A stretch of 33,620 nucleotides of DNA from Pseudomonadota bacterium (GCA_002862545.1 PKDJ01000024.1:1-33620), one strand, 5' to 3'. Shown: positions 9,933-15,277, counted from the stretch's first letter. Made by a program: numbers and translations. The notes: generated by a model not told the origin, from the letters alone.

Positions 9933-12900
9933 GTGACAGAGCCACTACAGTCTGAGCAGCTCCTCCATCTCCTCGCGACGCCAGAGAGACGCTTGATGCC
10001 ACTCCAACCCGGAGTCTGGGTCGAAGACCGCTACCGAGTATGCGAGCTCGTCGCGAGTGGTGGGACCGCCACCATCTATAGAGTGGAGCAGCGCTGGGGT
10101 GGGGTCTGGGCGCTGAAGGTGTTGCACCGCGTCGACCAGGAGCTGATCCAACGCCTGCGTCAGGAAGGACGCGTGCTCGCTCGCCTGCAGCACCCCAACG
10201 TGATCGCCGTCAAAGACACGGTGTCGGTCGAGGGACAGCCTGGCCTGATCATGGAGTTCGTGCCGGGCGGTCGCTCTCTGGCCCACCTCATCCGACGACA
10301 CGGAGGACTGCTGGATCTCGACTCCGTGAAGCACCTCGGCGCACAGGTGATCGACGGCCTGACGGCGGTGCACAGCCTCGGCATCGTCCATCGCGACATC
10401 AAGCCTCAGAACGTCCTCGTGGTCGGCGAGGGCAAGCGTGCTCGCGCCATGGTCTGCGACTTCGGCCTCGCCAAGTACGCGACCGATCCGCTCGTGGCGA
10501 CGCGAGCAGGCACCGCGATGGGAACTCCGCCCTACATGTCTCCAGAGCAGATCAGCGGCATGTCCCAGGTCGATGCTCGGGCGGATGTCTTCTCCCTGGG
10601 TGCGCTGCTCTACGAGCTCGTCACCGGTCGGCGAGCCTTCACGGGTCGCGATCAAGATGAGGTCTTGGCTGCGGTGCGGTCTGGCACCCGACATCGCGTC
10701 CGAGACCTCCGACCGAGCACGCCGTCCCACATGGTGCGAGCCATCGACGCAGCGCTGATCCCCGATCGCTCCCGTCGCACGGAAGACCTCCAGGCGATTC
10801 GCAGGATGTGGCTCGGACTCGATCGGCCCCAGCGCCAGAGACCGGCCTCGATAGCCTCCAGGGTCGTCGGAAATGCGGTCAGGCCGCTGGTCGCCCTCCA
10901 GGGTCGCGACAGCCTCGCCCGCAAGCTCACGCGACTGATCGAGCAAGGCACCCGGCTGATCACGCTCCACGGCCCCGGTGGAGTCGGCAAGTCACTCCTC
11001 GCGAACCATTCTGCGTCTTCCCTGATGAGCCACTTCCCCGGTGGTGTCTGGCGACTCGACTGCTCCGGCATGAGCACCATGGCCGACGTCCAGAGAGGCC
11101 TCCAGCGACTCGGGGTCCGGCGATCACTGCAGAGCAGCCTCCGAACTCTCCTCCTGCTGGACGACTTCGAGCAGCTTGCCGCGGATGTCGGCACGAAGCG
11201 CCTGAGCGACACACTCGCCCGCCGACCGTCACTGCAGCTGCTGATCACCAGTCGAGCGCGGCTGAACCAGAGCGGCGAGCGCGTGGTCCGCGTTCCCCCG
11301 CTCGACACCGAGTCTGCGCTCGGACTGCTCCGTTCCCACGCACAGAGCGAAGGGGTCGACCTCGAGCATGGATCGGACACGACACTCCGAGCGATCGTCA
11401 CGCGACTCGAGTGTCTCCCCCTGGCGATCGAGCTCGCAGCGCCGTGGCTCCGACTGCACGATCCCCAGACGCTGCTCTCCTCACTCGACGAGCGGGGCAT
11501 CCTGCATGCACTCGGTCACGAGAGCTCTCCTCACGCCACCCTGGAGTCCGTCTTCGACAGCTCCTGGCGTCTCCTGGCACCGCCGACGCGACTCGCCCTC
11601 TGTCAGCTCTCGGCATTTCGAGGAGACTTCGTCGTCGAGGATGCACTCGCCGTGCTCGATCTGTCGGCGCTCGACGAGCTCGACGTGGAGGCTCACTTCC
11701 ACAACCTCGTCGATCAGTGTCTGCTCAATCGGATCGCGAGCGGCAGTCGGCCCCGATTCTCACTGTCGAACACCACCCGCCACTATGCTGCCCGTCGGCT
11801 GGCAGACCCCACAGCCATCCTGACGTCCGAGGGAGCAGCGGTCACCGGACCCGAGGCCGTCGAGGCCACACACGCCAGGTACGTGCAGCGCGTCACCCGG
11901 CTCGCGGAGAGTGTCGGTCCGGGGCACGTTCGGGGGCCTGCCTCGTGGGGTCCGACCTCTGCACCGGGCCTGGCCGATCTCCTGGGCGCCATTCACGACG
12001 CCACGGATCGAGGCGACGCCGAGCACCTCAGCGATGCCTGCGTCGCGGCCTGGCAGCTCGTGAGTCGGCGAGGCGGCTTCGCCTCTCTCCTCGGAGCACT
12101 CCTGGCAGCCACCGACGGCATGACGCCGGCCATCGGCCCATGGGTACGGCTCCAGCGAACCATCGCCGCAGCGGCGCTGCCGCTGGGGCGCCTCGACATT
12201 GCCCGCTCTGCGACGCTCCGGCTCTTGGGACTGGCGAGGGAGCAAGGCGATCCCATCACCAACTGCCTGGCCCTCATCGACATCGCCGCAGTTCGCGCTG
12301 CTGCCGGGGCGGACCGGCGGGCCCTCGATGCCTGCCGCCAGGCCATCGCCATCGCACCACAAGAAGACACCCGCACGTGGGCCTTGCTTAGGTTGGCCGA
12401 GATTCACACTGTCCTCCGCCGCCCGGATGGTGGGGCTCTCGAAACGGCAACCGCCAGCTTTCGCCGAAGTGGTGACAGCTCCGGCATCGCCCTCTGTGAG
12501 CTCCTCGCGGCCAGGCGAGCGCTCGACGCCGAAGATCACCACGCCGCCGTACCCCTCGCGAGGCAGGCGCTCGAGCACTTCCGAGAAGATGCCGATCCTC
12601 GGAGAGCAGGGGAGGCCGAGGTCATCCTGGCCATGGGCCTGCACGCCCAGAGTGACGATCGCGCCATGGCCACCGCGCAGCACGGGCTCCGTCAGATCGC
12701 GGACACGGGCGACCTCTGCCTCGCTGCATGGGCCGTCGCGCGAGTCGCCGACCTGCGCGGACGCATCGGAAGCCGGTCTCAGGGACTGGCAGAGGTCACC
12801 CGCCTGATCCGCCAGTCCTCGCTTCCGGAGCCCGTTGAGGCCGACCTGTACACCACCGCCGCCGAGCTCGCGCTCGCTGACGACTGCCTCACCTCCGCGA

Positions 12901-13010
12901 GCGACTACCTCTCCCAGGCGCGTCGGCATCTGCCCCGCGACTGTCACCGCCCCCTAGCCAGCCGAATCGAGAGGGTGGATTCTCACATTCGGGTTAGTCT
13001 TTCGACATAA
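9933..13010 (+). CDS. Ser/Thr protein kinase fused to STAND (NB-ARC-like) NTPase and TPR-like repeats
   Basis: Kinase motifs ALKVL, HRDIKPQNVLV, DFGLAK, GTPPYMSPEQ; P-loop GPGGVGKS; Walker B LLLLDDFEQL; LLITSRARL; CLPLAIELAA; helical repeats at C-terminus. GTG start at 9933 or ATG at 9996. Confidence 0.92.
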   Translation: MTEPLQSEQLLHLLATPERRLMPLQPGVWVEDRYRVCELVASGGTATIYRVEQRWGGVWALKVLHRVDQELIQRLRQEGRVLARLQHPNVIAVKDTVSVEGQPGLIMEFVPGGRSLAHLIRRHGGLLDLDSVKHLGAQVIDGLTAVHSLGIVHRDIKPQNVLVVGEGKRARAMVCDFGLAKYATDPLVATRAGTAMGTPPYMSPEQISGMSQVDARADVFSLGALLYELVTGRRAFTGRDQDEVLAAVRSGTRHRVRDLRPSTPSHMVRAIDAALIPDRSRRTEDLQAIRRMWLGLDRPQRQRPASIASRVVGNAVRPLVALQGRDSLARKLTRLIEQGTRLITLHGPGGVGKSLLANHSASSLMSHFPGGVWRLDCSGMSTMADVQRGLQRLGVRRSLQSSLRTLLLLDDFEQLAADVGTKRLSDTLARRPSLQLLITSRARLNQSGERVVRVPPLDTESALGLLRSHAQSEGVDLEHGSDTTLRAIVTRLECLPLAIELAAPWLRLHDPQTLLSSLDERGILHALGHESSPHATLESVFDSSWRLLAPPTRLALCQLSAFRGDFVVEDALAVLDLSALDELDVEAHFHNLVDQCLLNRIASGSRPRFSLSNTTRHYAARRLADPTAILTSEGAAVTGPEAVEATHARYVQRVTRLAESVGPGHVRGPASWGPTSAPGLADLLGAIHDATDRGDAEHLSDACVAAWQLVSRRGGFASLLGALLAATDGMTPAIGPWVRLQRTIAAAALPLGRLDIARSATLRLLGLAREQGDPITNCLALIDIAAVRAAAGADRRALDACRQAIAIAPQEDTRTWALLRLAEIHTVLRRPDGGALETATASFRRSGDSSGIALCELLAARRALDAEDHHAAVPLARQALEHFREDADPRRAGEAEVILAMGLHAQSDDRAMATAQHGLRQIADTGDLCLAAWAVARVADLRGRIGSRSQGLAEVTRLIRQSSLPEPVEADLYTTAAELALADDCLTSASDYLSQARRHLPRDCHRPLASRIERVDSHIRVSLST

Positions 13011-13027
13011 TCGGGGCGAGAGCAACC

Positions 13028-15277
13028 TTGGATTTCGACGAGCGCTACGACTCCTTCGAGCGTCTGGGTCCAGACCTCCTCCGTGCCCGCCACAAGGGTC
13101 TCGACATTCCTGTCCTGCTTCGCATGGTGCAGGCCGACGATGCGGGCTGGGAAGATGTGATGCGGGTGGGAGGCACCCTCACTCACCTCAGCCATCGACA
13201 CATCCTGCCGGTGAACGAGGTTCTTCGCATCGAGGGCCAGGTCGCGCTCGCCATGCGCGCCCCGAGTGATGGCCGCTCCTTGGACTCCCGGCTGCAAGAA
13301 GGCCCCCTTCCGCTGCTCGAGGCCGTGACTCTCGGCGAGCAGATTCTCGATGCGCTCGCCTGCGCCCACGCACACGGCGTGACCCATCGCGCACTCTCCA
13401 AGCGGTCCGTGCTCGTCCGTCAGCTTCCCTCGGGTCCCGAGGCCTTCGTCTACGACTTTGCCCTGAATGCATCGTCCACCACCGCGACCGGCGGAAGTGA
13501 GCTGGGAGAAGACGTTCGCGCAGCGGGCGCACTCCTGTACGCCATGCTCACCGGGGACGACCCCTCGATCGACTCCGACCCGTCACGCACGAACCCCGGG
13601 ATCCCGCCCGAGCTCAGCGCACTCGTAGCCGACGCCGTTCGGGGTGAGCGCGACGGTAGCGCGCTGTCCTCGGGCGATCTGCTCAGCGCCTGGCGAGCCG
13701 CAACAGACCGCGTGGTCCCCGTCCCCGAGGTCGACTCCGTGGCCTGGGTGCCGTCCCACAGCCTCGGACCGGCGACAGCCGCCGACATCGTGGTCGATTC
13801 GATGCTGCCGCACTCTCTCGACACCTTCTTCGGCAGGCGCGCAGAGTTCGCACGACTACGGAGCTGGGTCGACCGTGGTGCACGCCTGATCAGCATCACG
13901 GGGCTCGGCGGACAGGGCAAGTCTCGCCTCGCCCTCGAGTGGTCGCACCGGAACGCCGATGCCTTCCCCGGTGGCGTCTACCGCTGCGTACTCACGAACG
14001 TCTTGTCCACGGAGGGGCTCTTCGATGCGGTGGGGAGCGCCCTCAGTCTCGCCGTGCTCGATGCCGACCCACAGCGCCAGATCGCCCGCGCCCTCCACTC
14101 CCGAGGACGAGTGCTCCTGCTGCTCGACGACCTCGAGCGCGCAAACGACACCGCTCCCGTCATCAGCGAGTGGCTGGCCCGCGCTCCGGAGGTGGTGGCG
14201 CTCTGCACCACGCGCATGCGCCTCAGAATCTCCGGAGAGCGTGAGCTCCCGCTCGGGTCACTTCCCCCGGAAGAGGCGGCCGCCATGTTCGAGGACCGCA
14301 TGGAAGCAGCCGGTCACCTCGACACCCATGCGCTGTCTCCGCAGGTCGTGGAGGATCTGGTCGCCGAGCTGGATGGCATTCCCCTCGCGCTCGAGCTCGC
14401 AGCACGCTGCACTCGCCTCCACCATCCATCCGAGATGCTCGCGCGTCTCCGGCATGGGGAGCTCATGCTCGGTGGTCCCTCGAGGGCAGGCCGGCAGACG
14501 ACCCTCGCACGCGTGTTCGCCGACCAGTGGGCCCTGCTGTCCAAGCCAGCAAAGTCCATGCTCCTGCAGATCTCAGTCTTCGCGAACGCCTTCACGCTCG
14601 AGGCTGCCCGCAGCATCGTCCAGGTTTCGCCTGGAGCGAACCTCGAGATGCTGCTGCACCAGCTGCTCGTCGCCGGACTGGTCGTGCGGGATGGGCCGGG
14701 GCGCCATCGCCTCCTGCGCAGCCTCGATCGCTTCCTCGCAGACCGGACGGAGAGTGATCTCGTCATGCACCTCGTCGGCCTCGGCCACAGGCACGCCGAG
14801 TACTACAGCGCCCTCGGTCACGGCGATCGCCTGAGGCAGCTGGGCAGCGACGAGCGAGGAGATCTGGAGAACCTGCTGCAGGCTGCGCACTGGGCGCGGT
14901 CCCAAGGTGAGGCCACCATCGCGGCCCGGTGCGCAGTGGCGACGTGGCGCCTGCTTCACCAGTTCGGTCCCACCTCGGCGATCGGATCCTTGATCGAAGA
15001 CGTGCTCGAGCTGCCGAGCTTGCTCCCTCGGCATCGCGGACGCCTCCACACGTGCCTCGCCGAGCGAGCGATGCGGGAGGGTCGACCCGATGCGGCCGAG
15101 TCACTCGTCGCCCGTGCACGCATGGACGTGGCCTCCGACCCCTCGATCCGAGACGTGGACGAGTACCTCGGACTGCGTCGCAGCTTCGTAGATCTCGCCA
15201 TCACACGCTCGCTCGATGCCAGCGCGACCGGAGCCCCGGCGCGCACCCACCAGCCCAAGATCCTCGGGCCTCGCTGA
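13028..15277 (+). CDS. Pseudokinase-STAND NTPase fusion, paralogous to the upstream gene
   Basis: Kinase-like N-terminus with THRALSKRSVLV in place of HRDxKxxN and VYDFALN in place of DFG; P-loop GLGGQGKS; LLLLDDLERA; ALCTTRMRLRISGE; GIPLALELAA; TTG start 17 bp after the upstream stop. Confidence 0.85.
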   Translation: MDFDERYDSFERLGPDLLRARHKGLDIPVLLRMVQADDAGWEDVMRVGGTLTHLSHRHILPVNEVLRIEGQVALAMRAPSDGRSLDSRLQEGPLPLLEAVTLGEQILDALACAHAHGVTHRALSKRSVLVRQLPSGPEAFVYDFALNASSTTATGGSELGEDVRAAGALLYAMLTGDDPSIDSDPSRTNPGIPPELSALVADAVRGERDGSALSSGDLLSAWRAATDRVVPVPEVDSVAWVPSHSLGPATAADIVVDSMLPHSLDTFFGRRAEFARLRSWVDRGARLISITGLGGQGKSRLALEWSHRNADAFPGGVYRCVLTNVLSTEGLFDAVGSALSLAVLDADPQRQIARALHSRGRVLLLLDDLERANDTAPVISEWLARAPEVVALCTTRMRLRISGERELPLGSLPPEEAAAMFEDRMEAAGHLDTHALSPQVVEDLVAELDGIPLALELAARCTRLHHPSEMLARLRHGELMLGGPSRAGRQTTLARVFADQWALLSKPAKSMLLQISVFANAFTLEAARSIVQVSPGANLEMLLHQLLVAGLVVRDGPGRHRLLRSLDRFLADRTESDLVMHLVGLGHRHAEYYSALGHGDRLRQLGSDERGDLENLLQAAHWARSQGEATIAARCAVATWRLLHQFGPTSAIGSLIEDVLELPSLLPRHRGRLHTCLAERAMREGRPDAAESLVARARMDVASDPSIRDVDEYLGLRRSFVDLAITRSLDASATGAPARTHQPKILGPR

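What the first reader, a model, noticed from the sequence alone, without database searches (positions are those of the whole stretch)
9933..15277. Tandem active-kinase-STAND and pseudokinase-STAND pair
Two adjacent co-directional genes (17 bp gap) share kinase-like + STAND NTPase architecture. They are evidently paralogues: FPGGVWRLDCS/FPGGVYRCVLT, LLLLDDFEQL/LLLLDDLERA, CLPLAIELAA/GIPLALELAA. The first keeps the canonical kinase residues (ALK, HRDxKxxN, DFG, SPE). The second has lost them while keeping an intact P-loop. Inference: they could work as a sensor/regulator pair, with the pseudokinase STAND gating or scaffolding the catalytic one. STAND NTPases include bacterial antiphage and programmed-death sensors, so an immunity or development role is possible but untested.
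Basis: partly seen in the sequence, partly recalled or inferred. Interest (0 to 1): 0.75.

Follow-up and report, generated by a model that had tools for sequence, protein, structure and literature searches.

The report
Kinase–pseudokinase STAND gene pair, duplicated
Two neighbouring bacterial genes encode related switch proteins, one carrying a working protein kinase and the other a dead copy of it, and a second, strongly diverged copy of the same pair elsewhere in the genome suggests that the two proteins are kept together because they work together.

Summary
Gene A (9933-13010) is an intact Hanks-type kinase fused to an NB-ARC-like STAND NTPase and a long C-terminal region. Gene B (13028-15277) is a paralogue with a pseudokinase in place of the kinase: the beta3 Lys, alphaC Glu and HRD Asp are replaced, the Gly-loop and activation segment are deleted, and its NTPase motifs are intact.

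The decisive new fact is a second pair, A'B', on another contig of the same genome: same gene order, 4-nt overlap, 40% (A/A') and 44% (B/B') identity. B' has no lysine in its pseudokinase region, so the catalytic Lys has not moved. The STAND tree is ((A,A'),(B,B')): one tandem duplication, loss of catalysis in B, then duplication of the whole pair. Separate duplications are rejected (p-AU 0.005). The pseudokinase core is among the better conserved parts of B/B' (50%), while A's C-terminal region diverges fastest (27%).

B-type genes were found nowhere else (63 order, 71 class, 379 phylum genomes), and every other kinase-STAND protein with its catalytic motifs covered is intact. B is best read as a non-catalytic partner regulating kinase A. 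Immunity is unsupported: neither locus shows defence genes. Rating: new variant of a known kind.

The parts
9933..13010 (+). Gene A: active Ser/Thr kinase - STAND (NB-ARC-like) - long C-terminal region, 1025 aa; probable true start ATG 9996
10035..10784 (+). Hanks-type kinase domain of A, all catalytic motifs present (ALK62, E78, HRD155, DFG176, SPE205)
   Evidence: Pfam Pkinase 35-284, E 8.9e-43; motif table
10890..11741 (+). STAND NTPase (NB-ARC-like) domain of A: GPGGVGKS, LLLLDD, CLPLAIEL
11760..13007 (+). C-terminal region of A, probably TPR-like helical repeats (Pfam TPR_MalT E 0.0068 only, below cut-off); fastest-diverging part of the pair, inferred sensor
13013..13022 (+). Purine-rich GGGGCGAGAG, possible ribosome-binding site of B, in the 17-bp A-B gap
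   Evidence: sequence; inference
13028..15277 (+). Gene B: pseudokinase - STAND, 749 aa, TTG start
13028..13732 (+). Pseudokinase domain of B: Gly-loop shortened, Lys/Glu/HRD Asp lost, activation segment and APE deleted, DFG Asp kept; predicted kinase fold without activation segment
13796..14707 (+). STAND NTPase (NB-ARC-like) domain of B with intact P-loop and Walker B
14708..15274 (+). Short helical C-terminal region of B, conserved in B' (47%)

Best explanation
A and B are the two subunits of one STAND-type signalling switch. A is the catalytic, sensing subunit: its variable C-terminal region detects a cue, its NTPase domain switches and oligomerises, and its kinase domain is activated by trans-autophosphorylation. 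B is a co-expressed non-catalytic subunit: its NTPase domain co-assembles with A's, and its pseudokinase domain packs against A's kinase as an allosteric regulator or spacer, setting when A can phosphorylate. Shown: the architecture, loss of catalysis in B, conservation of the B pseudokinase, and duplication of the pair as a unit. Inferred: physical interaction, hetero-oligomerisation, sensing by A's C-terminus, and the sign of regulation (unknown).
For: A second pair A'B' on contig C15, same order, 4-nt overlap. STAND tree ((A,A') 100/99,(B,B') 100/98) joined 99/83; grouping A with B by separate duplications rejected, p-AU 0.005. Shared inactivation in B and B' and no lysine in the B' pseudokinase region. 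The pseudokinase core is among B's better conserved parts, 50% against 41.5% for its STAND domain (C-terminus 47%). A and A' kinases intact, 59% identical; their C-termini 27%. NTPase motifs intact in all four. Co-directional and close or overlapping genes. No flanking homology between the two loci, so the pair itself is the unit. Every other kinase-STAND ORF in the genome and order with its catalytic motifs covered is catalytically intact, including those in tandem.
Against: Both examples are in one genome; no B orthologue was found elsewhere, so co-occurrence across species is untested. No interaction, complex or activity data. No complex prediction was possible, and full-length B did not fold confidently (pLDDT 38.8). 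The pair could be kept adjacent by co-regulation without physical contact.
Confidence: 0.68

Rival explanations
1. B is a decoy: a catalytically dead look-alike of kinase A that baits invader proteins targeting kinases, and B (or A with B) then triggers the response, as in plant NLR pairs with integrated decoys.
For: Inactive effector-like domains, including kinases with disrupted catalytic residues, are reported in bacterial conflict systems, with decoy or dominant-negative roles proposed (PMC7159879). The pseudokinase fold is kept while catalysis is lost.
Against: A decoy under an arms race should diversify, but the B pseudokinase core and C-terminus are among the better conserved parts of the pair; A's C-terminus is the variable part. 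No defence genes nearby.
Confidence: 0.1
2. Adjacency is historical: A and B are tandem duplicates that now work separately, and the second pair is a chance segmental duplication.
For: Tandem or neighbouring kinase-STAND genes occur elsewhere in the order without specialisation (L069, L070, both catalytically intact).
Against: Order and adjacency were kept in both copies through about 60% divergence while the flanks differ entirely; B-type genes have not been found alone.
Confidence: 0.15
3. B's kinase-like region is a decaying remnant without function; only its STAND domain matters.
For: Catalytic residues and the activation segment are lost.
Against: The remnant is as conserved between B and B' as any part of the protein (50% over residues 1-150), with coding-type GC at codon positions and higher identity at codon positions 1 and 2 than at 3; it is predicted to keep a kinase fold.
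Confidence: 0.05
4. B retains nucleotide binding or an unusual catalysis through a Lys-to-Arg beta3 substitution and the retained DFG Asp.
For: R32 is conserved in B and B' beside the beta3 position; the DFG Asp D143 is retained in both. Families with beta3 Arg, such as ActPs2, are suggested to bind ATP (PMC12599244).
Against: No catalytic Asp, no alphaC Glu, shortened Gly-loop and no activation segment. Binding is possible, phosphotransfer unlikely.
Confidence: 0.1

Closest known systems
Bacterial Hanks-type kinase - STAND (NB-ARC/AAA_16) proteins
   Same: A and A' have this architecture; about 30 relatives were found in the same order and genome
   Different: All other members whose catalytic motifs could be read are intact; none was found paired with a pseudokinase paralogue
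CP1 family of bacterial pseudokinases (PMC12599244)
   Same: Cytosolic kinase-like domain, about 40% pseudokinases, always fused to a predicted ATPase (COG3899)
   Different: B has an NB-ARC-type NTPase (AAA_16 below its Pfam cut-off) and no GAF/PAS domain; no obligate active-kinase paralogue next door is described in the CP1 section
Inactive kinase domains in VMAP/MoxR-vWA ternary conflict systems (PMC7159879)
   Same: Kinase domains with disrupted catalytic residues, in systems proposed to be multi-protein switches
   Different: Those are effector modules of a vWA/MoxR/VMAP system; here no MoxR, vWA or VMAP gene was identified beside either pair among the flanking genes scanned
Paired plant NLRs and pseudokinase adaptors of ZAR1 (ZED1/RKS1) (own knowledge; PMC6634424 for ZED1)
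   Same: Two linked NB-ARC proteins with unequal roles; a pseudokinase working with an NB-ARC switch
   Different: Different N-terminal effectors, no LRR, bacterial; analogy only
Eukaryotic kinase/pseudokinase pairs such as LKB1-STRAD or HER3 (own knowledge)
   Same: A pseudokinase allosterically controls an active relative
   Different: No STAND domain; not related by architecture

Membership tests
Hanks-type Ser/Thr kinase (gene A) | beta3 Lys, alphaC Glu, HRD Asp, DFG, APE | tested here: met
   Pfam PF00069 147 bits against a cut-off of 31.7. The first glycine of the Gly-loop is Ala in A and A'.
Hanks-type Ser/Thr kinase, catalytic (gene B) | Lys, HRD Asp, DFG, APE | tested here: not met
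   Lys, Glu, HRD Asp and APE absent; DFG Asp present; no lysine in the B' region
Protein kinase-like fold (gene B) | kinase topology | tested here: met
   AF2 pLDDT 68, pTM 0.70; the 50 best PDB matches shown are kinases, best E 9e-11, TMq about 0.6. The alignment row used was active kinase A, so the model leans that way. Sequence matches: Pfam E 1.5e-4, PDB PknE E 2.4e-8.
STAND NTPase (A, A', B, B') | NB-ARC-type P-loop NTPase with Walker A, Walker B and GxP motif | tested here: met
   Pfam NB-ARC above cut-off in all four; motifs in the alignment
STAND NTPase | C-terminal repeat sensor and signal-dependent oligomerisation | not testable with these tools
   Only weak TPR-like similarity in A (E 0.0068); oligomerisation needs experiment
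CP1 pseudokinase family | fusion to a COG3899 predicted ATPase and CP1 constraint residues | tested here: inconclusive
   No COG library on hand; B matches NB-ARC above and AAA_16 below the Pfam cut-off
ActPs2 pseudokinases | HRD Asp to Asn, 250-aa activation-loop extension, C-terminal TM regions | tested here: not met
   Family definition from PMC12599244; B has HRD Asp to Ala (B' to Gly) and a deleted activation segment
Known anti-phage system (PADLOC) | full-length match to a system component plus partner genes | tested here: not met
   A and B match kinase models (PD-T4-6, mad6 and others) only over the kinase or kinase-like domain; neighbours match no coherent system
VMAP/MoxR-vWA conflict systems | adjacent MoxR and vWA genes | tested here: not met
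   Pfam scan of nearest neighbours of both pairs shows none

The most novel reading that the evidence does not exclude
An obligate two-subunit bacterial STAND switch in which an active-kinase STAND protein is controlled by a dedicated pseudokinase STAND paralogue: a bacterial counterpart of paired NLRs in which the regulator is a dead copy of the effector, multiplied within one genome with diverging sensors.
Probability: 0.5. Interest if true: 0.72.

Novelty: new variant of a known kind. Interest (0 to 1): 0.52.

Why it matters
Kinase-STAND fusions are widespread in complex bacteria, but how their kinases are gated is not known to me and was not found in the papers read. A natural active/dead pair, present twice with diverged sensors, gives a tractable system to test whether a pseudokinase can gate an NLR-like switch in bacteria. 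It would link pseudokinase allostery, so far mostly a eukaryotic subject, to NLR-like pairing.

Tried and rejected
Two scans of genome contigs, one of viral contigs and a plasmid search found no relatives of B; plasmid matches were short kinase-like pieces of 66-71% identity. Full-length AlphaFold of B with only A as partner row failed (pLDDT 38.8); the pseudokinase domain alone gave a usable model. I did not hand paralogues from genome-search loci to the structure tool because its stated rule does not list them. L027, next to the A/B clade in the STAND tree, was examined and proved to be a winged-helix-like STAND protein without a kinase. Other neighbouring kinase-STANDs (L069, L070) were examined as possible active/dead pairs and rejected: all four kinases are intact. 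A defence-island reading was considered and not supported: the RecQ-like helicase at 3718-5712 matches PADLOC helicase models but looks like an ordinary RecQ. A first tree lost B through a de-duplication error and was rebuilt. The Foldseek search against viral structures was started but not collected.

Full report
What is there. The window holds two co-directional genes. A (9933-13010) encodes a Hanks-type kinase, an NB-ARC-like STAND domain and a long C-terminal region; B (13028-15277) encodes a kinase-like region, an NB-ARC-like STAND domain and a short C-terminal region. A keeps every catalytic motif. In B the Gly-loop is shortened by four residues, the beta3 Lys and alphaC Glu are gone, HRDIKPQN reads HRALSKRS, and the activation segment with APE is deleted, while the DFG Asp remains (DFA). 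The P-loop, Walker B and GxP motifs of B's NTPase are intact.

The decisive addition. Searching the window's own genome (a 6.19-Mb draft, 88% complete) with B returned a full-length paralogue, B', on another contig (43% identity, E 1.8e-150). Immediately upstream, overlapping by four nucleotides, lies A', an intact kinase-STAND protein 40% identical to A. B' has the same lesions (HGGLCAQS, no activation segment), and its kinase-like region contains no lysine at all, so the catalytic Lys cannot have migrated. The flanking genes of the two loci share no similarity, so the pair itself is the repeated unit.

History. A maximum-likelihood tree of 52 STAND domains, which does not use the kinase columns, gives (B,B') at 100/98 and (A,A') at 100/99, joined at 99/83. 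Holding A with B against the others, as separate tandem duplications would require, is rejected (p-AU 0.005). The simplest history is one tandem duplication of a kinase-STAND gene, loss of catalysis in the downstream copy, then duplication of the whole pair. Both pairs have since diverged by about 60% at protein level without losing adjacency or order.

Selection. Between B and B' the pseudokinase core (residues 1-150) is 50% identical, more than the STAND domain (41.5%) and slightly more than the C-terminus (47%); codon positions 1 and 2 are more alike than position 3. Between A and A' the kinase is 59% identical, the STAND domain 41.5% and the C-terminal region only 27%. So the pseudokinase is maintained, and the fastest-changing part is A's C-terminus, the place where STAND proteins usually carry their sensor. 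This argues for A as sensor and enzyme and B as conserved non-catalytic partner. The sensor assignment is inference; Pfam sees only weak TPR-like similarity there.

How unusual. Kinase-STAND genes are common in this order: 29 of 58 relatives searched have a STAND match to B at E 1e-20 or better. Every such kinase whose catalytic motifs are covered by the fetched sequence is intact, including those in tandem (L069) or convergent (L070) arrangement; several entries are truncated or duplicated loci, so this is roughly 30 distinct proteins, not a full census. Profiles of B, or of its pseudokinase alone, found no other member in 63 genomes of the order, 71 of the class or 379 of the phylum; the best other matches to the pseudokinase profile (E 6e-18 and weaker) were not classified one by one, but fall far below B and B' (E 2e-152 and 3e-124) and in the range given by ordinary kinases such as A itself (E 4e-13). 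No relative of B was found in viral contigs or plasmids. A-type relatives at E 1e-80 or better were only two single kinase-STANDs besides A and A'.

Fold. With A's kinase as the only partner row, AlphaFold2 gives the B kinase-like region pLDDT 68 and pTM 0.70, with strands and helices in kinase order but no activation segment. Foldseek matches are all kinases in the rows shown, best E 9e-11, TM about 0.6. The partner row biases the model towards a kinase. Full-length B did not fold usefully.

Mechanism. Best explanation (0.68): B is a dedicated non-catalytic subunit that co-assembles with A through the STAND domains and uses its pseudokinase to control A's kinase. Shown: anatomy, loss of catalysis, maintained pseudokinase, duplication as a pair. 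Not shown: contact, direction of control, the cue, the substrates. Rivals are a decoy role, independent function with historical adjacency, residual nucleotide binding, and a decaying remnant; the last is the least likely.

Known kinds. Single pseudokinase-ATPase fusions are described (CP1 family, fused to COG3899; PMC12599244), and inactive kinases occur in ternary conflict systems (PMC7159879). In the papers searched and read I found no active-kinase STAND with an adjacent pseudokinase STAND paralogue; absence from an open-access library is weak evidence. I rate it a new variant of a known kind. An immune role is not supported: neighbours are an M14 peptidase, uncharacterised genes, a PilZ-methyltransferase protein and a histidine kinase, with no MoxR, vWA or defence partner in the flanking genes scanned, and PADLOC matches are to the kinase or kinase-like domain only.

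Limits. One genome, two copies; draft assembly; shallow alignments; no experimental data. The phylum search was a sample of 379 genomes, and metagenome contigs could not be searched.

Noticed in passing
L069 (G007:C66, 1-9000): Very similar tandem duplicate of two long kinase-STAND genes, both with intact catalytic motifs; a young pair that could resemble the ancestral state of A and B.
   Followed up: partly
L070 (G011:C20, 4050-10415): Convergent pair of kinase-STAND genes, both with intact kinases but HLD instead of HRD.
   Followed up: partly
G019 (9.8-Mb genome): Large expansion of STAND genes: 18 matches to B at E 1e-20 or better, including three within 12 kb on contig C26.
   Followed up: no
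L009:10018-13074: Downstream of A'B': a fusion of PilZ, an apparent alpha/beta-hydrolase region and a methyltransferase (1019 aa), followed by a histidine kinase-response regulator hybrid.
   Followed up: no
window 9933-9996: GTG 9933 is probably not the real start of A; ATG 9996 matches the start of A'.
   Followed up: partly
window 10035-10784: The first glycine of the Gly-loop is Ala in both A and A' (ASGGTA, AAGGTA), unlike most relatives (GxGG).
   Followed up: no
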